A stretch of 64,000 nt of DNA from contig JAHLWP010000009.1 of assembly GCA_019057865.1 (NCBI GenBank), positions 1-64,000 on the forward strand. The letters run 5' to 3'. Positions 1 through 28,390 of the stretch are shown one piece after another. This DNA comes from Promethearchaeota archaeon (GTDB lineage Archaea; Asgardarchaeota; Lokiarchaeia; Sigyniarchaeales; SOKP01). The position numbers and the translations under genes are program-made. The notes below the pieces were generated by a model, which was not told where the DNA came from, did not search any database, and saw only the letters and a program-made list of their open reading frames with translations. How positions within the stretch are numbered: position 1 is the stretch's first letter; each line of letters opens with the position of its first letter.

Positions 1-2
1 CA

Positions 3-998
3 AAATGGAGAATAGATGCGAGATATGATATTTCTAAAGCAGGGGATGCGAATCTGCACTTTACAAGTCCGAATCCTGATTTACTGAGCGAAGTGGACCC
101 TGAATTAATTTCCCAGTTCCAAACATTCTATTATAAGCAAATGAAACATGTTTATGATCTACTTACGAGTAATGCATTTAACTGGTTAGTAGCTTCAGTC
201 CCAAATGATGATTGGGCGGATAAATTATTCCCGGATATTCCTCAAGATAGGCGAGAGAGCAAACTTTGGGATATAATCTTTGAGATTTGCCGTATAAATC
301 AAGAAGATCCGATTGCTGCTTGGGAAAAACACAATGATAACCTCGTTAAACGCAGTAATTATTTAAATCAAAAGCAGTATACTGCGTTAAAATTGACTGC
401 TCCTGGGACAAATTTAATGATTGGTTTGCCTAAAGACCACTATTGGGAAGGTGGGAGGGGTATTGCTCAGAATGGTATAACTTTTACAGCTAATATACCT
501 ACTGAAGAAGTCTTTACAATGCCACATAAAGATAAAGTTGAGGGGGTTGTTAGTACTACTAAGCCAGTATATTATGGAGGGTGCACAATCGAAAATTGTC
601 GTTTAAAGTTCTCTAAAGGTCGAATAGTTGAAGCTCAAGCAGAAAAGGGGGAAGAATCCATACTTAAAACACTTGAAACAGATGAGGGGGCGCGCCAATT
701 AGGAGAAATAGCCTTAGTACCACATAGTTCGCCGATCTCCCAGTCTGGGGTACTTTTTTACAGTATGTTAATCGATGAGAATGCTTCTAATCATATCGCA
801 CTAGGTCAAGCTTACAGAGATTCATTGAAAAATGGTAAAGCATTAACTGATGAAGAATTCATGGCTGCTGGAGGCAATAATAGCCTTATCCATCTTGATT
901 TTATGATCGGTTCGGGAGAAATGGATGTAGATGGAATTTTGGAAGATGAAACCGCAGAACCAATAATGCGAAATGGAGAATGGGCTTTTGATGTATGA
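3..998 (+). CDS. M29 family aminopeptidase (aminopeptidase T/PepS-like), 5' end cut by window edge
   Basis: ORF 93..998 starts at GTG, but the same frame is open to base 3 (KWRIDARYDISKAGDANLHFTSPNPDLLSEV...). Motifs SPISQSGVLFYSMLIDENASNHIALGQAY and HLDFMIGSGEMDVDG are typical of M29 aminopeptidases. Confidence 0.85.
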   Translation, partial: KWRIDARYDISKAGDANLHFTSPNPDLLSEVDPELISQFQTFYYKQMKHVYDLLTSNAFNWLVASVPNDDWADKLFPDIPQDRRESKLWDIIFEICRINQEDPIAAWEKHNDNLVKRSNYLNQKQYTALKLTAPGTNLMIGLPKDHYWEGGRGIAQNGITFTANIPTEEVFTMPHKDKVEGVVSTTKPVYYGGCTIENCRLKFSKGRIVEAQAEKGEESILKTLETDEGARQLGEIALVPHSSPISQSGVLFYSMLIDENASNHIALGQAYRDSLKNGKALTDEEFMAAGGNNSLIHLDFMIGSGEMDVDGILEDETAEPIMRNGEWAFDV

Positions 999-1102
999 TT
1001 TGATATTTATTTTTAATTCGATAATCCATTTATTAGATTGCATATTTTTTCCGGGTTTTTTGTAGATCAAACAAATGGTCTGCCAGAATGAAATGTTAAT
1101 TT
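803..1102 (+). repeat. Copy R1 of the aminopeptidase/PH-gene convergent junction repeat
   Basis: Near-identical to 1922..2220. Contains the aminopeptidase 3' end plus a minus-strand remnant of the PH-like gene 3' end (about 1013..1108). Confidence 0.9.
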
Positions 1103-1177
1103 TACAGATGGCATATTATGATAAAGAAAAGGTGTAGCTCATTTTTCTTTGATTTGTGAAGTATCTGAGGGTATAAT

Positions 1178-1594
1178 TCAGGTAATCTTATATGACTCTA
1201 TATTTATTCCAAATTCTTGAAAATGGCGCGTGTTTCTGGTAATGATTTTATCTGCATTCAATAATTTTGCAGTCAAACCAATTATACAATCTGCTATATC
1301 AAGTAAAATTCCTTTCGCTCTTAGACTCCCTTTAAAAGCTCCAGATTCTTGGAGAATTAGAATGTTGATGGGAATTATATGAAAACCAGATAAGACTTTT
1401 TCAATTTGCTCTTTAATTTTATTATGAACGACGTTTCCCTTCTTTTCTTTAGTATATCCTAATCCATCATATAATTCAGCAATAGTAATAGCAGAAATGA
1501 ATAATGATTCTTCTTTATATTGTTTTAATAAGGTTTTTACTTGTGGTTTACCTCGCCATATGTCAATAATTACTGTAGTATCAACTAATATCAT
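1178..1594 (-). CDS. vapC: PIN-domain toxin, VapC-like
   Basis: MILVDTTVIIDIWRG..., ITIAELYDGL, DIADCIIGLTAKLLNADKIITRNTRHF: PIN acidic motifs. Start taken at the internal Met of the 1178..1609 ORF. Confidence 0.85.
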   Translation of the reverse strand: MILVDTTVIIDIWRGKPQVKTLLKQYKEESLFISAITIAELYDGLGYTKEKKGNVVHNKIKEQIEKVLSGFHIIPINILILQESGAFKGSLRAKGILLDIADCIIGLTAKLLNADKIITRNTRHFQEFGINIESYKIT

Positions 1595-1596
1595 GA

Positions 1597-1863
1597 TTAA
1601 TCTTCCCATAATTCAGTAAATTTTGAAGTGGATTGAAGTGCATCGTTCTTTTTTCCCTCAATGATAGCTTTTTCAAATTCACTTAAGATTTCTTCCGAAA
1701 GATTTTTGGCAATACCAAAATGTTTCAGAGGATCTTTCTGTTGATTTAATATCAACCTTTCTATTAATTCAGAGAAACTCTCGTTCAGACCTTTTAATTT
1801 CTTCAGACTTTTGTATACATCATCCCGAATTGAAATCATTTTTGAAGTCATATCATCAACCAT
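1597..1863 (-). CDS. vapB: VapB-like antitoxin (DUF217-like)
   Basis: MTSKMISIRDDVYKSLKKLKGLNESFSELIERLI; directly upstream of the PIN gene. The longer ORF start at 1944 runs into the R2 repeat, so the start is set to MVDDMTSK. Confidence 0.75.
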   Translation of the reverse strand: MVDDMTSKMISIRDDVYKSLKKLKGLNESFSELIERLILNQQKDPLKHFGIAKNLSEEILSEFEKAIIEGKKNDALQSTSKFTELWED

Positions 1864-1921
1864 AGAATAATAAATATTTATATAAATATTTATATCAATA
1901 GACTTATAAAATTTTTTGTTA

Positions 1922-2220
1922 AGGTCAAGCTTACAGAGATACATTGAAAAATGGTGAAGCTTTAACTGATGAAGAATTCATGCTGCTGGAGGCAATATCA
2001 GCCTTATCCATCTTGATTTTATGATTGGTTCGGGAGAAATGGATGTAGATGGAATCTTGGAAGATGATACCACAGAACCAATAATTCAAAATGGAGAATG
2101 GGCTTTTGATGTATGATTTGATCTTTATCTTTAATTCGATAATCCAATAATTAGATTGCATATTTTTTCCGGATTTTTTGTAGAGAAAACAAATGGTCTG
2201 CCAGAATGAAATGTTAATTT
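1922..2220 (+). repeat. Copy R2 of the junction repeat: aminopeptidase 3' fragment plus PH-gene 3' remnant
   Basis: AGGTCAAGCTTACAGAGA...AATGAAATGTTAATTT; matches R1 (300 versus 299 nt, one 1-nt deletion that frameshifts the fragment). Confidence 0.92.
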
Positions 2221-2501
2221 TTCATTTAATAAATATAAAAATTAGTGAAAATAAAATGAACATTAAATTTTTAATTGTTTATTAAAATTAAATTTATATG
2301 AATAAAGGAAATGAAGATTTCCAAATCTAAGAAAAGCAATCCTCAAGTGAATTAATAATTTATAAATTTTTTTTTTATAATCCCTTATTGAAATTTTCGA
2401 TTCTCACTGTTTCTACTTAGAATATAGTATGGACATTTAATAGATGTAATAAGGTTGGAATAATTGTATAAATTAAAATTAAAATTAAAGATGATGTAAA
2501 G

Positions 2502-3041
2502 ATGAGTTTAGTATGTAGCAATTGTGGAATAAAAATAGAGACTGTACCTCTACAATGCGGACAAAGTGTTACTATTAACAATGAAACCAACAAATGGGAA
2601 TGTGACATGGGAAGATGTGGAGTAATTTCGTTTGATAATTTTCTCTGTGAAAATTGTTGTATCAACAGTAGTATAATGGAAATCTTTCATGGATTTGAGC
2701 GCTTATCGGAAGAAAATCTAGAATTTCGTCAAGAATTAGATAATTTAAAAACGATTATTGTTCAGACTAAATTAGAAAATCCGGATTTTGCCTATTGGGT
2801 AGAATTTGGGAACGGCAAATTTAAATTTGGAAAAGGTGAAATAAGCGGTGCAACTATTGATATTATTTGCTCTCAAAAAGTCATGAGTGATATCCTTGCT
2901 GGAAAAAAAGTTAGTTTTCGTGAATTTTTCAAGGGTACTCTTAAAATGGAAGGAGATCTTCAATATGCTGTTGTATACTTTGATTTACTTGGGTTAGCTT
3001 CAGAAATTAATAGAGAAATTGAGGTGTTGAATAATGAATAA
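2502..3041 (+). CDS. Cys-rich N-terminal domain plus SCP2-like sterol/lipid-binding domain protein
   Basis: N-terminal CSNCG...CDMGRCG...CENCC; C-terminal ...SGATIDIICSQKVMSDILAGKKVSFREFFKGTLKMEGDLQYAVVYF resembles SCP2. Overlaps the next ORF by 8 nt. Confidence 0.6.
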   Translation: MSLVCSNCGIKIETVPLQCGQSVTINNETNKWECDMGRCGVISFDNFLCENCCINSSIMEIFHGFERLSEENLEFRQELDNLKTIIVQTKLENPDFAYWVEFGNGKFKFGKGEISGATIDIICSQKVMSDILAGKKVSFREFFKGTLKMEGDLQYAVVYFDLLGLASEINREIEVLNNE

Positions 3042-3786
3042 AACTTTTGTTTGGGGCCATAGGGGCTCTGGATTCATAGATATCCAAAATACTGTTGATT
3101 CATTTCACAAATCAATTGAAGTGGGAGTTGATGGCATTAAAACTGAGGCAAAATTATCTAAAGATGGCGAAATATTTTTGTGTTTTCAGCAAAGTCTAAA
3201 AAAAAATGGAGAGTATGTACCAATTAAGGATTTAGATAGTAATGAGATTAGACCCTTAAGATTAGATAATAATGAATCAATTCTAACTCTACCTGAATTT
3301 TTCAGTGAATTTCATAATTATAATATCCGCTATAATTTTGATATACGAGACCCTGAGGTTGGTATAAGAATAGTTGAAATTGCGAGAAAATTTAATTTAA
3401 TTGATAAAATTGAGATAGCGAAAACATCAATGGATTCTTTTCCACTACCTAATATCTTTTCTAAAATTAGAGAATTCGATAAAAACGTAACATTGATTAA
3501 TACTATTTTTCTAAAGCATTCTATCATTGAGAAAAAGCATCTCGAAATAGAAAGTATGAAAAAACTAAATATCCAAGGGATTAATGTGAACTATAATTTT
3601 GCTAATTTTGAATTATTTAAATTGGTAAAAGAAAATGGATTTAGATTTTATGTTTGGGGCTTACTCTTTAATAGATCAATGCAAAAATTCCTAAAGATGA
3701 ATTATAAAGGACAATCGGTAGATGCTATGATGTCAAATTTTCCTCACAGATTAGTCAAACTAAGAAACGAAATTCAAAACTACTGA
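3034..3786 (+). CDS. Glycerophosphodiester phosphodiesterase-like (GDPD) protein, probably catalytically degenerate
   Basis: WGHRGSGFIDIQNTVDSFHKSIEVGVDGIKTEAKLSKDGEIFLCF; paralog of 54488..55237. Confidence 0.75.
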   Translation: MNKTFVWGHRGSGFIDIQNTVDSFHKSIEVGVDGIKTEAKLSKDGEIFLCFQQSLKKNGEYVPIKDLDSNEIRPLRLDNNESILTLPEFFSEFHNYNIRYNFDIRDPEVGIRIVEIARKFNLIDKIEIAKTSMDSFPLPNIFSKIREFDKNVTLINTIFLKHSIIEKKHLEIESMKKLNIQGINVNYNFANFELFKLVKENGFRFYVWGLLFNRSMQKFLKMNYKGQSVDAMMSNFPHRLVKLRNEIQNY

Positions 3787-3863
3787 GAAATTCTCTAACT
3801 AAAAAAATTTTTATTTATTTCCTATTTTTATTTATAAAATAATTTCTTGATAGGGATACCATG

Positions 3864-4065
3864 GGGAGAAATGGATGTAGATGGAATATTGGATGAGAAA
3901 AAAACAGAACCAATAATGCGAAATGGAGAATGGGCTTTTGATGTATGATTTGATATTTATTTTTAATTCGATAATCCATTTATTAGATTGCATATTTGTT
4001 CCGAATTTTTTGTAGAGAAAACAAATGGTCTGCCAGATTGAAAGGTTAATTTTACAGCCTCTCCG
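3864..4065 (+). repeat. Copy R3 of the junction repeat: aminopeptidase 3' fragment (to about 3948) next to the intact PH-like gene
   Basis: GGGAGAAATGGATGTAGATGGAAT...GGGCTTTTGATGTATGATTTGATATTTATTTTTAATTCG is shared with R1 and R2. Confidence 0.9.
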
Positions 4066-4475
4066 AAATCTGTGTTATAGGCCCATGAACCATCTACTCC
4101 AAATCGAATTCCTACTCCACCGTAAGTTCTAAAATTTGCTTTAGTTTTATCACAACTGGTTATTTTTTTTATGGGAATTCTTTTATGGTTAAAAATACCA
4201 TATGCTACTTCGATTTGATTACTGGTTAAGGTAATTTTTAACCCTCGGTAATTCCAATACATAAGAAAAATAAGCAAACTCACAGCACCGCATATAATCC
4301 CTATAAATGCCAATTCTATGGGTAAGAAAGCAGTAACTATAATCCCGAGAGAAGCAATTAATATACATGCAAATAACACTACAACTTTTATAAATCTTCC
4401 AGCTGGAACCCATTCTGTATATAATATTCCATTATTTTTTTGTGTATTATTTTCCTTAATTATCTCTATCACCAA
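3963..4475 (-). CDS. Membrane protein with bacterial PH-like C-terminal domain
   Basis: Two N-terminal hydrophobic segments, then VAYGIFNHKRIPIKKITSCD...FGEAVKLTFQSGRPFVFSTKNSEQICNLINGL. Confidence 0.55.
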   Translation of the reverse strand: MVIEIIKENNTQKNNGILYTEWVPAGRFIKVVVLFACILIASLGIIVTAFLPIELAFIGIICGAVSLLIFLMYWNYRGLKITLTSNQIEVAYGIFNHKRIPIKKITSCDKTKANFRTYGGVGIRFGVDGSWAYNTDFGEAVKLTFQSGRPFVFSTKNSEQICNLINGLSN

Positions 4476-4608
4476 ATTAATTTTGCGTTTTCAATTATTA
4501 TTCAATATAGTCATTTTCACCATTTTTAACTAGCTTTCACATTAAAAAATGTGAATAATCTTTTTTTTTTGCTCATTCTGTTCCCTCCTTCCTCTCTATA
4601 AAATTATC

Positions 4609-4896
4609 TCATAAGATTTTTTCAAAGTCATCCATAGTTAAATTAGAGGGAATACCAAGTTGAGACATCTTTAGAATGAGATCGTGCAAAGAAATTCTTG
4701 CAATTTCTGCCGCACGTTCAATGGAGATTTCCTTTATCATATATTTTTGGAGAGCAAAATTTAAACGCTCTTGCTGTAATCCTTCAATTAAGATTTTCTT
4801 TACTAATGCTGAGCGATCTAAATTTTCTTGTTCAGCAAGCTCCTCAAATTCCTTGATTAAATCTTCATCTAATCTCAAATTCATTTGTTTGGTCAT
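4609..4896 (-). CDS. RHH/UPF0175-like antitoxin
   Basis: MTKQMNLRLDEDLIKEFEELAEQENLDRSALVKKILIEGL then ERAAEIARISLHDLILKMSQLGIPS; 4-nt overlap with the PIN gene. Confidence 0.8.
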   Translation of the reverse strand: MTKQMNLRLDEDLIKEFEELAEQENLDRSALVKKILIEGLQQERLNFALQKYMIKEISIERAAEIARISLHDLILKMSQLGIPSNLTMDDFEKIL

Positions 4897-5420
4897 TTAA
4901 TTTCCTCCGTTGAGTTATTTATATTATTTTTAATAATTTCTTTTGCTTTTTTATAGAAGAATTTTACAACTTCTGGTTTTAATGCTTTAATAAGAGCAAG
5001 CTCCTCGAATGATTTTGTAAAGTTCTCATAATCAATAACAGATTTTTTAAGAAGATCTAATAAAATTACTTCAGAAGTTTTAGGTTTTAAACCTATACTT
5101 AAAGCTAGATTTAAAGCTTTATGATCATCAGTTACAGGAACACCATCATCTTTTAGGCATATTTCTATGGTATCTTTTTCGCCTTTTCCTAAATTTTTAG
5201 TTGTAAAAAAATTCTTTAATTTATAACTACTTTCCCTGATTTTCTTTTTTTCAATATTTCTATTCAATATCTTAGCATCTTCAAATTGGTCAATTTCTTC
5301 TACTAATTCATTTTTTATAGTTTGACTAACAATAACTTCTCCTAATTTAGTAAGTTTTTCCTTTAAGTTAATTTTAGTCAAATATATTAGTGAACAAGCA
5401 TCAAAAACAAATTTTGTCAT
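4893..5420 (-). CDS. PIN-like toxin (DUF3368-like)
   Basis: KFVFDACSLIYLTKINL...LGKGEKDTIEICLKDDGVPVTDDHKALNLALSIGLKPKTSEVILLDLLK. Confidence 0.75.
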   Translation of the reverse strand: MTKFVFDACSLIYLTKINLKEKLTKLGEVIVSQTIKNELVEEIDQFEDAKILNRNIEKKKIRESSYKLKNFFTTKNLGKGEKDTIEICLKDDGVPVTDDHKALNLALSIGLKPKTSEVILLDLLKKSVIDYENFTKSFEELALIKALKPEVVKFFYKKAKEIIKNNINNSTEEIK

Positions 5421-5633
5421 TAATTTAAATGTAGCATCGCTAGCATTTATATCTTTTTGTTATCATTTCATAGTATTCCTTTTCTTTTTTCTGATTGAAA
5501 GATCGTCAAGAACTCTTGGAAAAAATGTAACTAATAATAATATAACTGTTGAAATTAGCGGAAAGAAAGTAAGAATTATCTTATCGAACTAACTGGTAAA
5601 TTTTTTTTACTGTATACTGTATAAAAAGAAACA

Positions 5634-6230
5634 TTAAAATTTTATCTTTTTTAACCTCTTTAATGTAGTATTTAGCCCTAATTCTTTAATTTTTCTTTCT
5701 AAAAAAGTTAAATCTATTTTTTCTTTATTTACATGAAATAATGTTAAGAAATCAATAGCATCTTGATATTCAAGTAATTCAGAATCTGGGACATCTTCTA
5801 TATTTCCTAAATATAAGATTTTACCTATCAAGACGTATTCTAAAGGTGCAATTAATAGATCTTTACTAAGAATTTTTACGTGCACTGCGTTAGTTAAAAC
5901 CTCAATTTCTCTCTGTTCTTCGGCAAATTTAATATCTAATCTTAAATAGCTTTTTTTGTCAAATACACTAATATGTGTTTTTTCTCGGTATCCTTTATAA
6001 AATTGGTCTTTCATTACATCAAATTCAAATGCTTTTAATAAATCAATTAGCTGCGGGATTTTAGAGGCATCATTCTCAATAATTAGATCAATATCTTGGG
6101 TAGTTCTAACATGACCATAATGGATTAAAGCAATTCCACCAACAATAACATATTTGATACGAATTTTTTCAAATATTTTTTCTAATCGAGATAAAATATC
6201 ATCTAATTCTGCTATGAAAATACACTCCAC
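5634..6230 (-). CDS. Nucleotidyltransferase (MNT/AbiEii-like), possible TA toxin
   Basis: YVIVGGIALIHYGHVRTTQDIDLIIENDASKIPQL. Confidence 0.7.
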   Translation of the reverse strand: MECIFIAELDDILSRLEKIFEKIRIKYVIVGGIALIHYGHVRTTQDIDLIIENDASKIPQLIDLLKAFEFDVMKDQFYKGYREKTHISVFDKKSYLRLDIKFAEEQREIEVLTNAVHVKILSKDLLIAPLEYVLIGKILYLGNIEDVPDSELLEYQDAIDFLTLFHVNKEKIDLTFLERKIKELGLNTTLKRLKKIKF

Positions 6231-6508
6231 TTTTTGGCTTTTTTTAGCTTAGTAGATATTATTAAACTTGCTTTGACTTTATCCTTTACTTCTTCTATAT
6301 TCATAAGTGGAAATCTATTAAGGATTCCATCCTCTAGTAAATTAAAAGTATTATGAATAAATAAATCCGCGATTTCAAGCGGCTCTTTTTTCGTATTTAA
6401 CAATCTAAGCGCGGCTTCAATATTTTTCCGTAATTTTTCTTTTCTTATTAATAAAAGACTTTTTTGAGATATAGATGTTAATTTGCTTTTGATTGTCTTC
6501 GAGTCCAT
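6212..6508 (-). CDS. Small partner protein of the nucleotidyltransferase (possible antitoxin)
   Basis: 98-aa helical ORF overlapping the nucleotidyltransferase ORF by 19 nt. Confidence 0.45.
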   Translation of the reverse strand: MDSKTIKSKLTSISQKSLLLIRKEKLRKNIEAALRLLNTKKEPLEIADLFIHNTFNLLEDGILNRFPLMNIEEVKDKVKASLIISTKLKKAKKWSVFS

Positions 6509-6875
6509 TGTATTATCTACTTAGGTGAAAATTTAATTAATATCTAATTATTATTATAATTCTTATTCTAAATATTTGATTGGTCACAGATAATTTTCAA
6601 GTAATTAATTTCAAATAATAATCTCTATATGGCCTTCATGATGAATGATGGTATTACTGTGGTCTTTATATTGCTTTAAATTTTTTGATTTTCAAATAAT
6701 GATTTTCGTGATTGGGATGAAATTCGCAGTTTCGCGGAAAGATTTGCTGAAAAACTCTAATATTATGGGTAATGGATAAAATGACGATAGATAAAGATAA
6801 GTTAAAACTAAATAATAATAGGTTAAATTCAATAATACTTTAAATTAGATTTTAGTCTAAAAGTCATTTTAAAAT

Positions 6876-6980
6876 TGATAATTCATGTATTAGATTGCAT
6901 ATTTTTTGTGGATTTCTTGTAGAGAAAACAAATGGTCTGCCATGTTGAAAGGTTAACTTTACAGCCTCTCCGAAATCTAG
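6876..6980 (+). repeat. Copy R4: 3' remnant of a PH-like gene (coding sense on the minus strand)
   Basis: TGTATTAGATTGCATATTTTTTGTGGATTTCTTGTAGAGAAAACAAATGGTCTGCC...ACAGCCTCTCCGAAATCTA matches 3963..4075; reverse complement reads DFGEAVKLTFQHGRPFVFSTRNPQKICNLIHELS. Confidence 0.88.
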
Positions 6981-7243
6981 TATCACATCCTAACACAACA
7001 GAGCATCATATAAGATGGATTGATGTTTACTTCTTACCTGAAGGAGAAAAATTTCCTTATCAGATTGGTAAATCAGAATTCTCCGCTCATGGAGCATCTT
7101 TTGATGGAGCAAATTCAAGTACTATTTATTCAGATCCAATAACCAGCCTTACATTCAAAACAGAAAAATCTGGAACAATTATTGCATTTTCTTTCTGTAA
7201 TATTCATGGATTATGGCAAAATACATTAGAACTTAAATTTTAA
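6981..7243 (+). pseudogene. 5'-truncated desulfoferrodoxin/superoxide reductase
   Basis: VSHPNTTEHHIRWIDVYFLPEGEKFPYQIGKSEFSAHGASF...FKTEKSGTIIAFSFCNIHGLWQNTLELKF. The N-terminal part with the first iron-ligand His is replaced by repeat R4; ORF 6932..7243 begins inside the repeat. Confidence 0.8.
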
Positions 7244-7478
7244 CATGTTTAAATAATATTTGATTTTAATTTTTTTTATTTAAAACTAACTTTAAAAGAC
7301 TTTAGAATATTTCAATGTAAAATATTATAAAATTTATACTTTAAAGACACAATCCCAATAATGCTTTCTTTTTATTTGTAAGAAATCAGGTTTTCTTAGT
7401 CTTAATCACGGAAATAATTATTATGATAAATTTTCATATTGTAATAATAGAAATTAAATAGTTTTTGAGGTGAAATTT

Positions 7479-7826
7479 TTGTCTAAAACAAAAGAAACTG
7501 AAACAGAGATTGAAGAAAAAAAAGATAAATCGTCAAAATTAAGAGCATTTCCGCAGATTTGCGCTTTCACCAATAAAGAAGGTACTGGTTATGACATAGA
7601 AATTTATTTACCTGGAGTTGAAAAAGATACTATTGAATTGAAAATGAATAAAGACTATATCACTGTAAATGGTGAAACAGAGAGTGTTAGGTATACTGGA
7701 TCTTATAAATTATGCTGCCCAGTTGAACCTGATAAAGCAAAATCAACTTATAAAGAAGGCTTACTGAAAATCAATGTACCTTTTAAAGAGGTCGAATTGC
7801 ACACTGTTAATGTCCAAATTGAGTAA
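7479..7826 (+). CDS. Hsp20/alpha-crystallin small heat shock protein
   Basis: FPQICAFTNKEGTGYDIEIYLPGVEKDTIELKMNKDYITVNGE...SYKLCCPVEPDKAKSTYKEGLLKINVPFKE. TTG start chosen 6 nt after GGTG; the track start (GTG at 7470) lies in the SD. Confidence 0.8.
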   Translation: MSKTKETETEIEEKKDKSSKLRAFPQICAFTNKEGTGYDIEIYLPGVEKDTIELKMNKDYITVNGETESVRYTGSYKLCCPVEPDKAKSTYKEGLLKINVPFKEVELHTVNVQIE

Positions 7827-7913
7827 ATCTTTTCTTTTTTTTCTTTATTTTTTTAGTAAATGTTAATCTACTCTTTATTAATTTAAAAATATATTGTTAA
7901 TTGAGGTGTAAAT

Positions 7914-8066
7914 ATTATAAAAGAATTTCAAGATTGTATTGAAAATATTCAGAACAATAAAATAATTCCTCATATGACGCAAAATAAATTAAAAGACATT
8001 GAATTCGATGAGGAACTTTTTATTCAAGATGTATGTAAAAGTTTAAGAAAAAAATCTACTTCTTAA
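7914..8066 (+). CDS. Small 50-aa ORF with possible ATT/ATA start, hypothetical
   Basis: GAGGTG then ATTATAAAAGAATTT...: IIKEFQDCIENIQNNKIIPHMTQNKLKDIEFDEELFIQDVCKSLRKKSTS*. Confidence 0.3.
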   Translation: MIKEFQDCIENIQNNKIIPHMTQNKLKDIEFDEELFIQDVCKSLRKKSTS

Positions 8067-8454
8067 ACAATGTCTTTTTAATATTTATTTGAAAAAATAA
8101 GTAACTTCGAAAAACACAATATAGTATTTTTATTGACCTTTCATGATATCCTCATATATTATATTAAAGCCCCTACAAGTAGACTTCCTTAGTATTAAGA
8201 TAGAATTTTCTATCTAATTTTTACATTTTCATCAAATTCTCTCCAAGAATTAGCAGCATTTAAGTCTAAAGGCTCTAGTTTTTGTAAATAGAATTTTTGT
8301 TAAGATAATTTATTTTATTAAAAATTAAATAAAGTTCTTAATAGAATTTATATAACCAAGGATTCTAGAATTTATAAAAGAAATCCTAAAATATATAAGA
8401 ATATAAAATGATATTTAGGAAATTAATATTAATTAAATTCAATATTAGATCAAA

Positions 8455-9963
8455 ATGATAAATAATTTAGATTTTTCAATAATGAAAGATGGCAAGGATT
8501 ATAAATATTATTCAAATGGTAAATGGAGGAAATCAACTTCAGGAGATTTAATACAAGTCTATAATCCATATAATAATGAATTGATAGCAAATGTTCAAGC
8601 TTGTACAATGGAGGAAGCAGATAAGATTATCAAAGTAGCTCATGAAAATATTGATTGTTGGGAAGAATTTCCATTAAATAAACGGGCTGAAATTTTAAAT
8701 GAATCGGCAAATCTAATGATTAAATCGTCAGAGAAATTAGGACATTTATTAATGAGAGAAATAGGTAAACCACTTAATAGTGCAATTTCGGAAATTATTA
8801 GAACCGCAGAAATATTTAAAGCAACAGCAGAATCAAGTTTGCAAATTTCGGGTGAAACAATTATAGGTGATGCTTTTGAAGGTTATTCTAAAGAAAAGTT
8901 GTCAATAACTTATAGGGTACCTTTAGGAGTAGTTTTATGTATAGGCCCATTCAATTATCCATTTAATTTGACTGGATCGAAAATTGCCCCTGCTCTTATG
9001 GCCGGAAATTCTGTAGTCATGAAGCCTCCAAGTCAAGGTCCTTTAACTGCTCTTCATTTTGGAATAATTTTAGAAAAAGCTGGAGTACCACCTGGAGTAT
9101 TCAACATTATAACGGGGCGTGGCTCTGAAATTGGAGATTATTTAGTAAGTCATCCATTAATTGACATGATAAATTTTACAGGATCTTCAGAAACAGGAAA
9201 ATTTCTAGCAAAAATTGCTGGTATGAAGCCTCTATTACTTGAATTAGGAGGTAAAGATGCTGCAATTATCTTAGATGATGCAGATTTGGATATTACTGTA
9301 AAAGCAATCGTTTCAGGAGCTTTCTCTTTTAGCGGTCAACGTTGTACAGCCGTCAAGAGGGTTTTACCCATGCCGGGAATCGCAGATAAATTGATCGAAA
9401 AGGTAACAAAAGAAACCTTAAAATTAACAATTGGAGACCCTGCAAAAAACAATATTATTGGACCATTAATTAGTTCAAAACAATGTGATTATGTTCAAGG
9501 TTTAATAGATGATGCTCTTGAGAAGGGAGCAGTATTAAAGTGTGGAAATAAACGTGAAGGTAATATTATATGGCCAACAATCTTAGATAATGTTAATGTA
9601 GATATGAGAATTGCCTGGGAAGAACCCTTTGGTCCTGTTCTTCCGTTTATAAGAATAAATAGTGCAGAACAAGCAATTAAAATTTCAAATAAATCTGAAT
9701 ATGGTCTTCAGGGGATGATCTTTACAGAAAATATTGATTTAGCTTTCAATATCGCACAAGAATTAGAAGTAGGAACAATTCAGGTTAATGGGAAAAGTTC
9801 TCGAGGACCCGATCACTTTCCTTTCCTAGGAACAAAATCTTCAGGATTAGGAACTCAAGGGATAAAGTATGCTCTTGAATCCATGAGTAGACCTAAAGTA
9901 GTTGTTATGAATTTATCCGAAAAAGGAAAGCTTATAAAAGAATGCTTTGTACCTGAAAAGTAA
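8455..9963 (+). CDS. gapN: NADP-dependent non-phosphorylating glyceraldehyde-3-phosphate dehydrogenase (aldehyde dehydrogenase superfamily)
   Basis: GPFNYPFNLTGSKIAPALMAGNSVVMKPPSQGPLTALH, LELGGKDAAIILDDADLD, FSGQRCTAVKRVL. Confidence 0.85.
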   Translation: MINNLDFSIMKDGKDYKYYSNGKWRKSTSGDLIQVYNPYNNELIANVQACTMEEADKIIKVAHENIDCWEEFPLNKRAEILNESANLMIKSSEKLGHLLMREIGKPLNSAISEIIRTAEIFKATAESSLQISGETIIGDAFEGYSKEKLSITYRVPLGVVLCIGPFNYPFNLTGSKIAPALMAGNSVVMKPPSQGPLTALHFGIILEKAGVPPGVFNIITGRGSEIGDYLVSHPLIDMINFTGSSETGKFLAKIAGMKPLLLELGGKDAAIILDDADLDITVKAIVSGAFSFSGQRCTAVKRVLPMPGIADKLIEKVTKETLKLTIGDPAKNNIIGPLISSKQCDYVQGLIDDALEKGAVLKCGNKREGNIIWPTILDNVNVDMRIAWEEPFGPVLPFIRINSAEQAIKISNKSEYGLQGMIFTENIDLAFNIAQELEVGTIQVNGKSSRGPDHFPFLGTKSSGLGTQGIKYALESMSRPKVVVMNLSEKGKLIKECFVPEK

Positions 9964-10022
9964 TTTAGTCTCTCTAATCTCCAATTATTCATTTCATAAA
10001 GTTAATAAAAACATGTAAATAA

Positions 10023-10361
10023 TTATTCATTATATATTTCATTGATTTTTGCTCCCATTATAAAATCATTAAGATGGAGTCCTTTGATTGCGTGTGTATG
10101 GAGTTCTAACACGACTTTATCATAATATATGTAGAAATCTGGATGATGGCCCTCTTCTTCAGCAAGATCCGCGACTTTATTCACAAATTTCATAGCTTCC
10201 TTGAAATCTTTGAAGTAGAACTCCTTTTTAATTCGATGAATTCCTTCACTCATAAGTGACCATCCCTCTATTTCTTTAATATATTTATTTTCTTTTTTTT
10301 CAGTTAGAGGGGGTATCCCACCTTCACACGGCACACATTTATTTTTTAGTAAATCGGGAAT
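10023..10361 (-). CDS. Pterin-4a-carbinolamine dehydratase (PCD/DCoH)
   Basis: CVPCEGGIPPLTEKKE...IEGW...EEGHHPDFYIYYDKVVLELHTHAIKGLHLNDFIMGAKI. Track start GTG at 10334; homology-like N-terminus (PDLLKNKCVPCEGG) continues to ATT at 10361, preceded by GGTG. Confidence 0.85.
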   Translation of the reverse strand: MPDLLKNKCVPCEGGIPPLTEKKENKYIKEIEGWSLMSEGIHRIKKEFYFKDFKEAMKFVNKVADLAEEEGHHPDFYIYYDKVVLELHTHAIKGLHLNDFIMGAKINEIYNE

Positions 10362-10640
10362 AGTATTTCACCAAATCAAAATATCTTATAAGGTCAAAAC
10401 AATTTCAAACTTATAAATGCTCTTATAATGGAATAAAAACATTAATAAGGAATTAACTTATTGAACATAAAGAAATTAAAGAAATTTTGAAATCTTTCAA
10501 ATCTCCTTAAAATTAGCAAAGATAATCAATTTCAACAAATTAATTAACTTTATTTTTATAGATATTAGATTTTTAAACCCAAAGCGATTAATAATTACTG
10601 AAGGAATTATTTATCATAACTTTTAAAGTTTAATTCATGA

Positions 10641-11333
10641 ATGATTATGGAAAAAGTGAACGATATGAATGATCTTGAGAAAATTGTAAGGGATAGATTA
10701 ACTTGGGATGAGAGGATAGACGAATCTCAAATTGAAGTTTCTGTAAATGATGGTATTGCTATATTAAAGGGATGTGTTTCAACTTATCCTGAAAAAGTAT
10801 TAGCTGAAATTGAAACACAAATGGTGACTGAAATAAAATCGGTAGTTAATGATATTGAAGTAAAATTTCCTGGTTCCTATGAGATGCCATCGGATCAAGA
10901 TGTAAAGGAGGCTATGTTTTGTCTATTAGATGCAAATTCAGAGATAGATTCCAATGATGTTCAAGTATCCATTAATGATGGCAATGTTATTTTAGAGGGA
11001 ACTGTGAATTCATATTGGAAAAGCGAAAAGATCCGAAAAATGGCTTCTCAAATCTCTGGTGTTGTTTCAGTTAAGAATAAAATTTCAATCATACCTGAAG
11101 TAAAGATCTCTGATGAAGATATTACTAATCTTATAATTACATCAATGCAAAACTCTGTTCATATTGATGCTCAAAAGGTTAATGTGAAAGTTAAGGATGG
11201 CATTGTCACTTTATCCGGAACACTATCTTCAATGAATGAATATGACGCAGTTAAAAAAATCGTCGAATTCACTAAAGGAGTTATTGACATTAAAAATAAT
11301 TTGAAATGGGTCCTTAGGTATCAAACAACTTAA
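10641..11333 (+). CDS. BON-domain protein (three BON repeats)
   Basis: Three repeats of the type ...I.VSVNDGIAILKGCVSTYPEK / VQVSINDGNVILEGTVNSYWKSEKI / VNVKVKDGIVTLSGTLSSMNE. Confidence 0.85.
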   Translation: MIMEKVNDMNDLEKIVRDRLTWDERIDESQIEVSVNDGIAILKGCVSTYPEKVLAEIETQMVTEIKSVVNDIEVKFPGSYEMPSDQDVKEAMFCLLDANSEIDSNDVQVSINDGNVILEGTVNSYWKSEKIRKMASQISGVVSVKNKISIIPEVKISDEDITNLIITSMQNSVHIDAQKVNVKVKDGIVTLSGTLSSMNEYDAVKKIVEFTKGVIDIKNNLKWVLRYQTT

Positions 11334-11634
11334 TTACCACTATAATTAACTTCTGACTTCAGTAATTTTGATAGAATAACTAAACTAATCTGGAAAGAAC
11401 TTTTAAAACTTTTTAATAAAAGTTAAAGAAGATCAATTGATGTATAATCAGCTTGGATAGATTTTGATATACCAAAAAAACCAGGTTTATGGATAAGTTA
11501 TATTATTAGTGGATTAGTAAGTAATTAAATGACATATTAAATTTATTTGAGATTACTCACAAAGGAGATTATTCGAGCTATTAATGAATCACATTCTGAA
11601 GATGTTTACCATATTGCAATTGCTATAATCAATT

Positions 11635-11973
11635 CTAATTATTTTCTGATATTTTTTCAATAACAGATTTTAATTCAGGTAATCTTTGTTTAATAGTCAT
11701 CCAGACTAATTTTAAATCAACTTCAGAATAAGCATGAATTAACTTATCTCTCATTCCCGCAATTTCTTTCCAGGGTATTTGCGAATGTTGATTTTTCATA
11801 TCTTCAGGAAGATTCTTAGTTGCTTCTCCAATTATTTCAAATTTTCGAATAACTGCACTCGAAGTTTTATCATCATTTTTAAATTCTTCAAAGGTCATTC
11901 CTTCTACAAAAATTTCTATGCTATTTATTGCTTCTCTAATATCATTTAAGTAAATTGTAAAATTTTTAGACAT
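11635..11973 (-). CDS. hepT: HEPN-domain toxin (HepT-like, DUF86)
   Basis: EIIGEATKNLPEDMKNQHSQIPWKEIAGMRDKLIHAYSEVDLKLVW; RX4-6H-type motif. Confidence 0.88.
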   Translation of the reverse strand: MSKNFTIYLNDIREAINSIEIFVEGMTFEEFKNDDKTSSAVIRKFEIIGEATKNLPEDMKNQHSQIPWKEIAGMRDKLIHAYSEVDLKLVWMTIKQRLPELKSVIEKISENN

Positions 11974-12300
11974 ATATTACCTCTTGAAGAATTTGTTCCC
12001 TTAATTCTTTTTTCAATGTAGGTTTTGATATCACATCAACCTTTCTATTAAAATGATCTTCTAAAAAGAGGGATAACCCAATATAATGGAATAAATCAGC
12101 ATCATCTTCAAATTCAATTAAAAAATCGATATCACTTGTCTCTTTTTGCTTATTATTTACATATGACCCGAATAATCCAATTTTTTTCACTTTATAATTT
12201 TTCTTAATTTCTGCTTTTAGTTTTTTAAGCATTTTGAGAATTTCTTCTTTGTCGTGTACCATTTTTATAACCTTTTTTAAAAACTCCTTTTCTCAAGAAA
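11776..12300 (+). repeat. Direct repeat A (hepT/mntA segment), partner of 16007..16531
   Basis: About 525 bp near-identical at constant offset 4231, no indel seen by eye. Confidence 0.9.
11966..12262 (-). CDS. mntA: MNT nucleotidyltransferase antitoxin (MntA-like)
   Basis: KKIGLFGSYVNNKQKETSDIDFLIEFEDDADLFHYIGLSLFLEDHFNRKVDVIS; overlaps hepT. Confidence 0.88.
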   Translation of the reverse strand: MVHDKEEILKMLKKLKAEIKKNYKVKKIGLFGSYVNNKQKETSDIDFLIEFEDDADLFHYIGLSLFLEDHFNRKVDVISKPTLKKELREQILQEVIYV

Positions 12301-12518
12301 AGAATTCAAGAGCATAAATTAATACTCTTTATAGAAATATTATCAATTAGAATTAATAAATAAAATGGAGATAATATTTATTGTTTTATTTGTTTGTGAG
12401 TCCTTAAAAATAGAGGTTTGAAAATTAATTGTTTGATTTGAGTTTTCAAAAAATGGACTCCTAATATCTTATATTATCTCAGTTAAACATATTACATAAT
12501 TTTTTAAGTGCTCCAAAT

Positions 12519-12944
12519 TTATGATTGGAGATATTTTTTTCTTTGTTCTAATAATTCTATCTTCTCTTGAATACTCTTAAAACGATTGGATTCAATTCTG
12601 TGAATCATATCTTTCCAAATTGAACGGTAATGATAAAAATATTCTGATATTTCAAGAGGATTTCCAAAAACAACTTGATAGTTCTCAATGACCTCAATTT
12701 TTAAGCTTAATGATAGTAATTCAAAGATTTTTATGTCATAAGTCTCAGGGAATTCCCCCCAAAAATTTTTCCAAATTGATATATTTGATTCTTTATTTCT
12801 TTTTTGGGTAATAATTGCAATATCGATATCAGATTTATGAGGAATATAATAATCAGAAAGATAACTCCCATAAATTACTACCCAGTATTTATCCAGCTTT
12901 TTTAAATCTTTTTTAACTTTATTTAGATCATTAGAGTTTTTCAT
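12519..12944 (-). CDS. MNT nucleotidyltransferase
   Basis: YWVVIYGSYLSDYYIPHKSDIDIAIITQKRNKE. Confidence 0.75.
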   Translation of the reverse strand: MKNSNDLNKVKKDLKKLDKYWVVIYGSYLSDYYIPHKSDIDIAIITQKRNKESNISIWKNFWGEFPETYDIKIFELLSLSLKIEVIENYQVVFGNPLEISEYFYHYRSIWKDMIHRIESNRFKSIQEKIELLEQRKKYLQS

Positions 12945-13332
12945 TAATTACTTTCTCCACTTCCTTTACAAATTTTTTAAGAATATCCGCAAAATTATTT
13001 TTTTCTTGAATAATTCTTTCTTCTTCAATTTTATTATATCTATGTACCAGTACATTTCTTAAACCATTCAAACGGCGTAAATCTTTTAATAAATCCATCT
13101 GGAATATATTAAGGCTCTCTAACTCATCAATATTCGAATAATCGTCCCGAACTGTTATACCCAAATCTTTGCACAACATTGCAACTATATCCATTGCAGC
13201 ATCAATAGAAATTTGTAGGCGGTAGAATAATGCATCAATGTAAAAAATATTTTCTTCAATATTATCAGGTAATAAAGAAATCTTATCAATTATAAATTCT
13301 AGTTTTCGGCTATATTGATCCTTTCGTTTCAT
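12931..13332 (-). CDS. HEPN-like (HepT/DUF86-type) protein
   Basis: LQISIDAAMDIVAMLCKDLGITVRDDYSN...LNGLRNVLVHRYNKIEEERI; overlaps the MNT gene by 14 nt. Confidence 0.8.
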   Translation of the reverse strand: MKRKDQYSRKLEFIIDKISLLPDNIEENIFYIDALFYRLQISIDAAMDIVAMLCKDLGITVRDDYSNIDELESLNIFQMDLLKDLRRLNGLRNVLVHRYNKIEEERIIQEKNNFADILKKFVKEVEKVINEKL

Positions 13333-13588
13333 ATTAAATCATATAATCTGGAGATAAATTATGAATCATATAAATTCTAGCTCTTTATTGAATTATTATC
13401 TACAAGAATTAATAAATAAAATGGAGATAAGATTTATGGTTTTATTTGTTTGTGAGTACTTAAAAGTATACTTTTGATAATTGAGATTTATTGTTATTTA
13501 AATTTTTACATTTAAGTATTTTACTTTAAAAAAAAGGGTCTAAAAGAGGTCCCAAAGATAAAAAAAAAAAGAGATGATAAAATAATTA

Positions 13589-15658
13589 TTATCTTGTTAT
13601 TTCGTATGTGTAATCTGCAGGACCTACAGTAGGACTGACTATCACTATCAAATAACCATCCTCATGTATATAGCCACTCAAATCTAATGAACCAAACTCA
13701 TTAACATCATCAAGTGATAATTCAAATACATCATTGTAAGATGGAATTTCGTTAATGACAGTAACATCAACTATAGATACAACAAAGTCGGTTTCAGGTA
13801 GAGGAGGAGTGGTGAATACAACCATATCATCAGCGTTATCAATTAATACGTCATTAATTTTGATGTTATCCACCCACCAGCCTGGATTTTCTGTTCCCCA
13901 ATCTGTCATATATCTAAAGCTTAAACGAACTGTTTGTCCTGCATAACGGGTAAGATTAAAATGCATAGTATCCCAGCCAAATGACCCCGTTAATCCTGGT
14001 AAGTTCTCTACAATCGCAGGATATGCGTCAGGATCATGATCCATTGTTGTATACTCATTTTCTAATGATGTCCAGGTTTCTCCATTGTCATCAGATATTT
14101 GAACAAATCCATAATCCCAAAGTTCTTCAATGTCGTAATATGTTTCAAATGATAAAGTGGCAGTACCAGTAGGTACATTAATAACTGTGTTCATTGAAAG
14201 ATCCTTTTCTGGTCCGGCACTTGTAGAGTACCACTCAAGATCTCCGTCACCATCTTGATCTACTCTTGTCCATATAGGAGGATTTGCAACGTCATTGCCA
14301 TCAAAAATAAATTCTTGGCTCATTGATTCACTTAATCCACTTAACATAAAGTAATCTGTACCATAAGATCCTACTAAATAAACTTCGGTATTTTTATGTA
14401 ATATGGTTTTTGTTTGACCAAAATCGGCTCCTGTTTTTGGAGGAATCCATGGTCTCTTAACATCATAAACTCTAATTGGGTCTGCATCTTCACATCCTAA
14501 ATCAATCGTAAGATAGTTGTATTTTCCATTTCCAATTTCATTTGTATGTAGAAGATTTGCAAGTGTCCAATCATAAAAAACTTCTTCAAAGGATTCAGTG
14601 GCTCCAAAATTTTCAAGAGCATTGTTAATCCCTTCTATCCCTGGAATTCCTGTTTGAACAAAATACGAGATAAAGTCAACACCACCGTAATGATCACTTA
14701 AATATTTTGACCAAAGTAATCCTTGTCCATAATCAGCTAAGATATTAATATTCCCTTGATCTCCCCATACTGTTAATGAATTATCTGGAGTAGCTAGAAA
14801 ACTATTAATAGATCCCCAATCAATAGGGTATCCACATAATGGTTCTGCATACATTGAGCATCCTTCATTCATGAAAGTATCATCTTCTGGATTATAATCA
14901 TCATGAATGAGATGTTGATATTCGTGAGCCACAGTAGCTTCATAAAGGTTTGGTCTAGCAGCATCATCACCTACTCGGTTTTCCCAATCAGCACTATCAA
15001 TCGAAATGATATTCCTGTCAAATTGCCTTTCAAAATAGGACCAGTAGAATCCTACAATGTAATAAGGATAACTTCTAACATAATACGCCGTATCTCTAAT
15101 ATTGGAAACCAGGATTACTGTTCTTCCACTTTCATCTTCATATGTTCCTTCTGGAACCACTCCGTCTATTACTAGTTGAGAGTTGCTTCCATCATGAAAA
15201 TCAGGGACTCCAAAGTAATCATTACAAATTGGAGCTATATCATTCTCGAATTCTTCCAACATATAATTCACTTGTTCATCTGTTATTACTGGGACATCTC
15301 TACCATCTGGATAAGCCATATCGACTTGAACCCAAAGTTCTGCAACCATACCGATTGCTCTTAATTCAAAAGTATCAAAAAAAGACTCTCCATTATAATC
15401 GTCAAGTATCAACCAGTCCAATGGGTCACCAACTACATAGTAGTCAGATTGAGCCGTTTTTAATCTTGGTGTCATTTCTTTTTGAGAAAATGACCCTGTT
15501 ATGGGTAATTCTTTTGTTCTTAATTCAGGACCAATATCAATAGGGATTAAATCTATGGATTCTGTATTAGAAGCTAAGGTAAATCCAAATATGAGGCCTA
15601 TTGATATAGGGAGAATTAAAAGTATTAATATTGTTGAAATTTTAGTAGATTTTTTCAT
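13589..15658 (-). CDS. Secreted M6-like (immune inhibitor A-like) metallopeptidase
   Basis: N-terminal signal-like hydrophobic segment; VAHEYQHLIHDDYNPEDDTFMNEGCSMYAEPL (HEXXH with downstream E); C-terminal sandwich region DDNGETWTSLENEY...WWVDNIKI. Confidence 0.8.
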   Translation of the reverse strand: MKKSTKISTILILLILPISIGLIFGFTLASNTESIDLIPIDIGPELRTKELPITGSFSQKEMTPRLKTAQSDYYVVGDPLDWLILDDYNGESFFDTFELRAIGMVAELWVQVDMAYPDGRDVPVITDEQVNYMLEEFENDIAPICNDYFGVPDFHDGSNSQLVIDGVVPEGTYEDESGRTVILVSNIRDTAYYVRSYPYYIVGFYWSYFERQFDRNIISIDSADWENRVGDDAARPNLYEATVAHEYQHLIHDDYNPEDDTFMNEGCSMYAEPLCGYPIDWGSINSFLATPDNSLTVWGDQGNINILADYGQGLLWSKYLSDHYGGVDFISYFVQTGIPGIEGINNALENFGATESFEEVFYDWTLANLLHTNEIGNGKYNYLTIDLGCEDADPIRVYDVKRPWIPPKTGADFGQTKTILHKNTEVYLVGSYGTDYFMLSGLSESMSQEFIFDGNDVANPPIWTRVDQDGDGDLEWYSTSAGPEKDLSMNTVINVPTGTATLSFETYYDIEELWDYGFVQISDDNGETWTSLENEYTTMDHDPDAYPAIVENLPGLTGSFGWDTMHFNLTRYAGQTVRLSFRYMTDWGTENPGWWVDNIKINDVLIDNADDMVVFTTPPLPETDFVVSIVDVTVINEIPSYNDVFELSLDDVNEFGSLDLSGYIHEDGYLIVIVSPTVGPADYTYEITR

Positions 15659-15943
15659 TTTTTTAACCTTTCAAAAATGTGTGGTTAAAAGAAATTCGAT
15701 TGAGATAAAAAGAAATGAGGTATATTTCTTCCCAATTGACAAAAGATTAAAAAATTAAAACCATATTTTTAATAGTCCTTTTTTCACTCCTATGATATTT
15801 AATTCGTTTTCCAAATATATGTATGGTTTCATGGGCTTTGAGGAGTCAAAAGCTGCAATTATTGGATCTATTACAAACGTTAATAATTAATTTAAAGAAA
15901 AAATCCTTGAAGTTTTTCGATTTCCGAATCAAAGTGATATTTT

Positions 15944-16204
15944 TTAAATTAAAAACCATTTTTTTTTATTGAATGAACCTAGCCGCGATATTGTTATATT
16001 TGGTTTTATTTGCGAATGTTGATTTTTCATATCTTCAGGAAGATTCTTAGTTGCTTCTCCAATTATTTCAAATTTTCGAATAACTGCACTCGAAGTTTTA
16101 TCATCATTTTTAAATTCTTCAAAGGTCATTCCTTCTACAAAAATTTCTATGCTATTTATTGCTTCTCTAATATCATTTAAGTAAATTGTAAAATTTTTAG
16201 ACAT
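15944..16204 (-). pseudogene. C-terminally truncated HepT copy
   Basis: Same N-terminus as 11635..11973 up to KNQHSQI, then unrelated FKPNITISRLGSFNKKKWFLI; lacks the RX4-6H region. Confidence 0.8.
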
Positions 16205-16531
16205 ATATTACCTCTTGAAGAATTTGTTCCCTTAATTCTTTTTTCAATGTAGGTTTTGATATCACATCAACCTTTCTATTAAAATGATCTTCTAAAAAGA
16301 GGGATAACCCAATATAATGGAATAAATCAGCATCATCTTCAAATTCAATTAAAAAATCGATATCACTTGTCTCTTTTTGCTTATTATTTACATATGAGCC
16401 GAATAATCCAATACTATTTACTTTATATTTTTTCTTGATTTCAGCCTTTAGTTTTTTAAGCATTTTGAGAATTTCTTCTTTACCCTTTACCATTTTTAAG
16501 ACCTTTTTTAAACAATCCTTTTCTCAAGAAA
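16007..16531 (+). repeat. Direct repeat B of 11776..12300
   Basis: Near-identical 525 bp, same orientation. Confidence 0.9.
16197..16493 (-). CDS. mntA: MNT nucleotidyltransferase antitoxin (MntA-like), duplicate
   Basis: Almost identical to 11966..12262. Confidence 0.8.
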   Translation of the reverse strand: MVKGKEEILKMLKKLKAEIKKKYKVNSIGLFGSYVNNKQKETSDIDFLIEFEDDADLFHYIGLSLFLEDHFNRKVDVISKPTLKKELREQILQEVIYV

Positions 16532-16607
16532 TTCTTTTCTTTCATGGGAAAATTAAAAGAGCCAAAGGTTTTATTAGGATATTTGCTATTGATTGGGTCA
16601 ACTCAAA

Positions 16608-16775
16608 TTATTTTTTAGTTTTAAGTTTTTTTAAATATTGTACTGCTCGATATAAATGTAGTTCAAATAGCATTTCATCCTGCGGAAATTCTTCTTTTAA
16701 TTCTTTAATTAAATCTTCCTTTTGCTCCTTTGATAATTCCAAATCTTTTAAGAGCATTTCTATATCATATAACAT
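16608..16775 (-). CDS. Small protein downstream of PIN gene, possible antitoxin
   Basis: MLYDIEMLLKDLELSKEQKEDLIKELKEEFPQDEMLFELHLYRAVQYLKKLKTKK*; 55 aa, below the ORF-track cutoff. Confidence 0.45.
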   Translation of the reverse strand: MLYDIEMLLKDLELSKEQKEDLIKELKEEFPQDEMLFELHLYRAVQYLKKLKTKK

Positions 16776-16786
16776 ATTATCCACCT

Positions 16787-17239
16787 CTATAATTCTGGGG
16801 GTGCAAGTATTTCAATAGATTTATAGCCTTCCTTTAAATTAATCAAATTGACTCCTATTCGAGTCTTTCTTTTAACAAGATGTTTAAAATTCCAACTAAT
16901 TAGAATATCAAGTGAATAGACAGTTGTTAAAGCAAGTAGAAGAGCGTCATTTTCAAATTTTTCTGGAATAAGTCCCTCTTTTACGTAAATAGATTTCATC
17001 TTATCAACTTCATTTGTAATCTTAATTTTATTTCCTTTTTTTAAGAATTTCTTTAATTTCTTTTTTATTTCTTCATTTTTTACTGCTTCTATTTCTTCGA
17101 CATTTATATTTGAAAAATAAAGCTCAAAATTATCAATACTTTTCCAAAAATCTTCTGTTTGTTTTTGACGTATGGGATCTCTATCATATAACATAGCACT
17201 ATAAACAGAAGTGTCCAAAAGAATTTTTAGTTTTTTCAT
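16787..17239 (-). CDS. PIN-domain protein (VapC-like)
   Basis: KILLDTSVYSAMLYDRDPIRQKQTEDFW...PEKFENDALLLALTTVYSLDILISWNFKHLV. Confidence 0.8.
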   Translation of the reverse strand: MKKLKILLDTSVYSAMLYDRDPIRQKQTEDFWKSIDNFELYFSNINVEEIEAVKNEEIKKKLKKFLKKGNKIKITNEVDKMKSIYVKEGLIPEKFENDALLLALTTVYSLDILISWNFKHLVKRKTRIGVNLINLKEGYKSIEILAPPEL

Positions 17240-19479: not shown

Positions 19480-19576
19480 TAAATATTTGTAAATGTTCAA
19501 CACAATTTCGCGAACTTTTTTTATATATTACATTCTGCTCATTTTCTTTAAAAAAAATAATATTTTTTTATAAAAA

Positions 19577-28336: not shown

Positions 28337-28390
28337 CTACAATTAATCACAATTAAAAAATATGAATAATTTCTTTGAAAAAGGAATTCC

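What the first reader, a model, noticed from the sequence alone, without database searches (positions are those of the whole stretch)
803..4075. Gene-end junction copied as direct repeats that bracket cargo genes (possible undescribed integration/expansion mechanism)
Three same-orientation copies of one convergent junction (aminopeptidase 3' end facing the PH-like gene 3' end) occur at 803..1102, 1922..2220 and 3864..4065. R1 carries the (nearly) whole aminopeptidase plus only a PH-gene tail. R3 carries only an aminopeptidase tail plus the whole PH gene. R2 has both tails. The simplest reading is an ancestral aminopeptidase-PH pair split twice, once by vapBC and once by the SCP2-GDPD gene pair, each event leaving a junction copy. 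Elements that integrate at a gene end and carry a replacement 3' end leave such scars, but no integrase is visible here. Tandem duplication with later deletion is an alternative.
Basis: partly seen in the sequence, partly recalled or inferred. Interest (0 to 1): 0.8.

Follow-up and report, generated by a model that had tools for sequence, protein, structure and literature searches.

The report
Recombination scars in Lokiarchaeial toxin-antitoxin hotspot
In an uncultured Lokiarchaeia genome, a neighbouring pair of genes found intact in a sister species has been split by two sets of extra genes, leaving broken copies of the gene ends behind; this looks like ordinary homologous-recombination gene turnover in a busy hotspot, not a new type of mobile element.

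Summary
In detail: three same-orientation copies of one convergent M29-aminopeptidase/PH-like junction (803-1107, 1922-2224, about 3841-4057; 91-93% identical) bracket vapBC and an SCP2-GDPD pair. A sister species (G005, about 95.5% identical) and a more distant congener (G006) have the pair uninterrupted, so the empty site exists. The cargos occur elsewhere, patchily, in congeners. So the "split pair" reading is supported.

The proposed novel integration mechanism is not. There is no integrase on the contig, no tRNA nearby and no shared cargo-end motif; AP-side repeat ends differ, and R1 and R2 share only a PH-side end (within about 4 bp). R2's AP tail carries alleles of other species (P=1e-4), R1's PH tail groups with R2's while R3's is native, and R1 and R3 share a 93-bp identical tract (P=0.001). 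This fits additive homologous recombination between divergent alleles. A second cargo-bracketing repeat lies at 11776-12300/16007-16531. In sampled loci of the genus, orphan gene fragments are mostly 3' ends (37 versus 11), a real but unexplained bias. Event order and donor form are unresolved; the 93-bp tract exceeds the inferred assembly k-mer (55).

The parts
1..998 (+). M29 aminopeptidase (AP), 5' part off-contig (contig C5 starts here)
   Evidence: Pfam Peptidase_M29 E 3.8e-123; 93% nt identity to intact AP of G005
803..1107 (+). R1: AP 3' end plus 31-residue PH tail, first junction copy
1178..1609 (-). VapC PIN toxin (cargo 1)
   Evidence: Pfam PIN E 2.1e-16; 79% nt homologues in G016 at other places
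1597..1875 (-). VapB antitoxin (cargo 1)
   Evidence: Pfam VAPB_antitox E 5.9e-15
1922..2224 (+). R2: AP tail (frameshifted) plus PH tail, second junction copy; AP part carries alleles of other species
2502..3041 (+). SCP2-domain protein (cargo 2)
   Evidence: Pfam SCP2 E 2.8e-8; with GDPD in 8 congeners at 70-87%
3034..3786 (+). GDPD-family phosphodiesterase (cargo 2)
   Evidence: Pfam GDPD E 3e-14
3841..4057 (+). R3: decayed AP tail plus native PH 3' end, third junction copy
3963..4475 (-). Complete PH-like membrane protein gene, orthologue of G005 PH (91% aa)
   Evidence: no Pfam match
4609..5420 (-). RHH/UPF0175 antitoxin plus PIN-like protein; 97% nt identical cassette in the G013 hotspot; absent from the G005 locus
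5634..6508 (-). Nucleotidyltransferase plus small partner protein (toxin-antitoxin type), absent from the G005 locus
6866..6978 (-). R4: PH tail remnant abutting a 5'-truncated desulfoferrodoxin remnant (deletion scar)
11776..12300 (.). HEPN-MNT repeat copy A (second direct-repeat system; single copy in G005)
12314..12426 (.). Short repeat copy, matched at 13370-13482 (85%), brackets an MNT-HepT cassette
13370..13482 (.). Second copy of the short repeat
16007..16531 (.). HEPN-MNT repeat copy B: first 390 bp identical to A, last 135 bp about 13% divergent

Best explanation
This is a gene-turnover hotspot, rich in toxin-antitoxin cassettes, in a Lokiarchaeia genome. DNA from related lineages, carrying its own divergent copies of the AP-PH junction next to cargo genes, was added by RadA-type homologous recombination at the junction. 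Additive events (single-crossover integration of a circle, unequal crossover, or 'alternative pairing' of an incoming fragment) leave a junction copy on each side of the cargo. Shown: the intact empty site in sister species, the repeat geometry, the divergence and mosaicism of the copies. Inferred: that recombination was homologous and additive, that donors were other Lokiarchaeia, and that later decay (frameshift, deletions) turned the surplus gene ends into scars.
For: Intact AP-PH adjacency in G005 and G006. G005 is collinear with the window at about 95-96% around the insertions. Copies differ by 7-9%, as much as species, not like recent duplicates. R2's AP tail: 4 of 9 substitutions against the native allele match G001, null P=0.0001. 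R1 and R2 share PH-tail alleles at 1048, 1054, 1088 and 1094, where R3 equals G005, while R1 groups with G005 in the AP part, so R1 looks chimeric. A 93-bp identical R1-R3 tract flanked by divergence on both sides, P=0.0012. A second, mosaic, cargo-bracketing repeat in the same hotspot and several in a toxin-antitoxin island of G016, against none in 135 kb of background contigs. No integrase on C5. Precedents: hotspots without mobile elements driven by recombination at flanking core genes (PMC5635113); hybrid-repeat-bounded duplications from transformation (PMC3784515).
Against: R1 and R2 end within about 4 bp of the same PH position although followed by different cargo, which recombination at random points does not predict. 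The chimera rests on eight informative sites. No donor genome with AP-vapBC or PH-SCP2 adjacency was found, so the direction of transfer is inferred. R1-R2 differences also fit a duplication older than the split from G005 with later loss in G005.
Confidence: 0.55

Rival explanations
1. Purely intragenomic tandem duplication of the junction, followed by insertion of cargo between copies and partial deletion and decay, before the split from G005; G005 restored the pair by recombination between repeats.
For: Repeats are direct and R2 is a decayed pseudogene; private substitutions are common in R2; recombination between R1 and R3 would restore exactly the G005 state.
Against: R2's substitutions match other species' alleles more often than random decay gives (P=1e-4); AP-part and PH-part groupings conflict; needs a loss in G005.
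Confidence: 0.25
2. Assembly artefact: strain variants or an excised circle joined into one contig.
For: The window is the very start of contig C5, whose first 55 bases equal those of C85, a k=55 graph break; the R1-R3 exact tract is 93 bp and copies A/B share 390 identical bp, both longer than 55; the assembly has about 5% contamination.
Against: R1-R2 and R2-R3 share at most 35 exact bases, so the joins through vapBC, R2 and SCP2-GDPD are unambiguous at k=55; R2 and the truncated PH tails are real sequences with no counterpart in G005.
Confidence: 0.12
3. Site-specific integration at the PH 3' end by elements carrying a replacement tail.
For: R1 and R2 PH-side ends coincide within about 4 bp with different cargo; PH tails are the commonest orphan fragment in this genome.
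Against: No integrase on C5; AP-side ends differ; other PH-tail ends (R4, 28268, C85, C81) fall at different codons between about 134 and 153; the repeat extends 200 bp into AP; no shared cargo ends; no cargo with such tails in 18 congeners.
Confidence: 0.08

Closest known systems
[quoted passage not shown]
   Same: Variable accessory genes between conserved genes, no integrase, strong turnover, toxin-type cargo
   Different: Described for bacteria with double-crossover replacement; here the flank ends are duplicated, i.e. the events are additive
Transformation-induced merodiploids by alternative pairing (PMC3784515)
   Same: Direct duplication bounded by a hybrid repeat, made by homologous recombination without a transposase
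   Different: Pneumococcal duplications are about 100-900 kb and between IS copies; here repeats are 200-300 bp gene ends and the bracketed DNA is foreign-like cargo
Homology-facilitated illegitimate recombination (PMC3240628)
   Same: One homologous anchor plus an arbitrary joint adds foreign DNA next to a homologous segment
   Different: Joint microhomology could not be tested without donor flanks
Asgard integrative elements and aloposons (PMC8813620)
   Same: Insertions at gene ends in Asgard genomes
   Different: Aloposons target tRNA genes and carry giant genes; here no tRNA, integrase or giant genes

Membership tests
Recombination-driven turnover hotspot | Gene content differs among relatives between conserved flanks | tested here: met
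   AP-PH interval: 14 bp in G005, about 60 bp in G006, 3 kb in own, 1.6 kb (aminotransferase) in L142/L149, 3.8 kb in L153; PH-HEPN interval about 0.2 kb in G005, 7.1 kb in own
Recombination-driven turnover hotspot | No mobility gene needed or present | tested here: met
   No Phage_integrase on contig C5; no transposase or integrase among the island proteins scanned
Recombination-driven turnover hotspot | Recombination signal in the flanking genes | tested here: met
   Mosaic R1 and 93-bp identical tract; few sites, so moderate strength
Site-specific integrative element | Integrase or recombinase gene in or near the element | tested here: not met
Site-specific integrative element | att repeats with constant ends at each insertion | tested here: not met
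   PH-side ends of R1/R2 coincide, but AP-side ends differ and other PH tails end elsewhere
Transposon with target-site duplication | Short fixed-length duplication and terminal inverted repeats | tested here: not met
   Duplications of about 304 and 194-217 bp; no common or inverted cargo ends beyond AT-rich runs
Homology-facilitated illegitimate recombination | Microhomology at the non-homologous joint | not testable with these tools
   Donor flanks unknown

The most novel reading that the evidence does not exclude
Lokiarchaeia have an unknown process, or a recombinase acting in trans, that preferentially breaks and rejoins DNA at the 3' ends of genes, adding cassettes (mostly toxin-antitoxin pairs) between convergent genes and leaving arrays of orphan 3' ends; the shared R1/R2 PH breakpoint and the 37:11 excess of 3'-end remnants would be its footprint.
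Probability: 0.08. Interest if true: 0.7.

Novelty: new member of a known kind. Interest (0 to 1): 0.3.

Why it matters
It gives a polarised example (empty site, occupied site, mosaic repeats) of how Lokiarchaeia add genes without a visible mobile element, and suggests that homologous recombination between species-level alleles is active in an Asgard lineage. The excess of 3'-end over 5'-end remnants is a simple, testable genome-wide statistic: it may reflect selection against promoter-bearing 5' fragments or a bias in where DNA is joined.

Tried and rejected
Rfam scan of 1-34000: nothing. tRNA targets: none in 1-20000. PH relatives in viral contigs: none. Integrase: none on C5. Shared cargo-end motifs: only AT-rich runs. 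Idea that PH tails persist because their antisense T-runs terminate the convergent AP or histone transcript: plausible for R1 and C85 but fails for R4, which has no convergent neighbour, so not adopted. Claim that the HEPN-MNT repeat shows the same reciprocal crossover pattern as R1/R3: rejected, because copy A becomes G005-like again at 12314-12378. A tree with the R2 and R3 tails gave no resolved placement.

Full report
What is there. The window is bases 1-64000 of contig C5 of a Lokiarchaeia metagenome-assembled genome (the closest relatives are all Candidatus Lokiarchaeota/Lokiarchaeia MAGs). The three junction copies are real: R1 803-1107, R2 1922-2224, R3 about 3841-4057, all in one orientation. 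R1 belongs to the M29 aminopeptidase (AP), which runs in from the contig start. R3 belongs to the intact PH-like gene 3963-4475, which has no Pfam match. R2 has only tails; its AP tail is frameshifted. Between R1 and R2 lies vapBC; between R2 and R3 an SCP2-GDPD pair.

Ancestral state. In G005, a sister species about 95-96% identical around the locus, AP and PH are convergent, intact and 14 bp apart (ORFs 10242-11507 minus and 9715-10227 plus in L034). In the more distant G006 they are about 60 bp apart. G005 also lacks window 4486-11606 (only about 0.2 kb there), so the first 17 kb of the window is a turnover hotspot. In L142/L149 an aminotransferase and in L153 several genes lie between PH and AP, without junction copies. 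The cargos live elsewhere in congeners: vapBC only in G016 (79%, two places), SCP2-GDPD in eight congeners. G016's vapBC homology ends at 1917, just before R2 begins at 1922. The RHH-PIN cassette 4543-5492 is 97% identical to one near the PH gene of G013, and the MNT-HepT cassette 12532-13347 is 91% identical to one on the same G013 contig, which points to recent exchange of cassettes between species.

How the copies are related. If each insertion had simply duplicated its target, young copies would be alike and all would be native. They are not. R1 and R3 differ at 14 of 194 sites, but 93 consecutive sites are identical (P=0.0012 by shuffling). To the right of that tract R1 shares alleles with R2 against R3 and G005 (1048, 1054, 1088, 1094); in the AP part R1 shares alleles with G005 against R2 (822, 837, 842, 908). 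R2's AP-part substitutions match G001's alleles at 4 of 9 sites (null P=0.0001). So R1 looks like a chimera with a native left and an R2-like right, R3 has a decayed left and a native right, and R2 is not a copy of this genome's AP made after the split from G005. This is what homologous recombination within the junction, between divergent alleles, leaves. Whether the donor was a circle (single crossover), a linear fragment paired alternatively with sister chromosomes, or a ready-made island taken over by flank recombination cannot be decided. Eight informative sites carry the chimera claim, so I call it suggestive.

Not a one-off. A second cargo-bracketing direct repeat lies at 11776-12300/16007-16531 (HEPN-MNT, single in G005): 390 bp identical, then 135 bp about 13% different, again a mosaic; a shorter pair (12314-12426/13370-13482) brackets an MNT-HepT cassette. 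A toxin-antitoxin island in G016 (C11) has several such repeats. Background contigs C1, C2, C3 (part) and C4 of this genome (135 kb) have none; C81 has one. R4 (6866-6978) is different: a PH tail and a 5'-truncated desulfoferrodoxin meet at their broken 5' ends (about 6978), which reads as a deletion scar of a divergent pair (inference).

Against an integrating element. No phage-type integrase on the 132-kb contig, although the genome has five matches elsewhere, four over the cut-off; no tRNA; different AP-side ends; PH-tail ends scattered over about codons 134-153; no shared cargo ends; no such scars around other cargo in 18 congeners. For it: R1 and R2 break within about 4 bp of the same PH position.

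The 3'-end bias. In sampled contigs of this genome, 13 orphan fragments are C-terminal, 1 N-terminal and 1 internal (two of the C-terminal ones, on C3, are doubtful); in loci of relatives 24, 10 and 7. A control shows that N-terminal pieces are, if anything, easier to detect. Loci were picked for PH or AP, which inflates the own-genome figure; leaving out PH and AP in the own genome gives about 28-30 to 10 (my recount). The cheapest explanation is that 5' fragments keep promoters and are selected against. A joining bias is not excluded.

Caveats. C5:1-55 equals C85:1-55, a k=55 assembly break inside AP. C85 joins an AP fragment to a histone gene, a PH tail, toxin-antitoxin genes and a PH 5' piece, and may be a strain variant of this hotspot. 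The 93-bp R1/R3 tract is longer than 55, so the link across it depends on read pairing; an intact AP-PH plus a circle would give the same graph. Joins through R2 are unambiguous (longest exact match 35).

Verdict. Observation confirmed; 'pair split twice' supported; new mechanism not supported. Best filed as a recombination-driven, toxin-antitoxin-rich hotspot (compare PMC5635113 and PMC3784515), new as an instance in Lokiarchaeia.

Noticed in passing
window 6866-7243: A PH tail (minus) and a 5'-truncated desulfoferrodoxin (plus) meet at their broken 5' ends, as if one deletion removed both promoters.
   Followed up: partly
L032 (contig C85) 1-4637: First 55 bases identical to C5:1-55 inside AP, then histone, PH tail, lipocalin, TumE-like pairs in both orientations, DUF433 and a PH 5' piece: probably a strain variant or second scarred copy of the hotspot.
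   Followed up: partly
window 28268-28465: Two orphan 3' ends in the same orientation (PH and a Roadblock-domain family) in tandem between intact genes.
   Followed up: partly
own contigs and relatives' loci: Orphan gene fragments are mostly 3' ends (37 C-terminal against 11 N-terminal), not explained by detection bias.
   Followed up: partly
window 4543-5492 and L048 11500-12450: RHH-PIN cassette 97% identical in DNA between species whose PH proteins are only about 76% identical: recent exchange between species.
   Followed up: partly
L121/L085/L122 (G016 C11): 35-kb toxin-antitoxin island with several direct repeats, including copies of a DsbA-like gene's 5' region at two non-coding places.
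   Followed up: partly
window 60927-61642: Internal direct repeats of about 190-400 bp at 73% identity, not examined.
   Followed up: no
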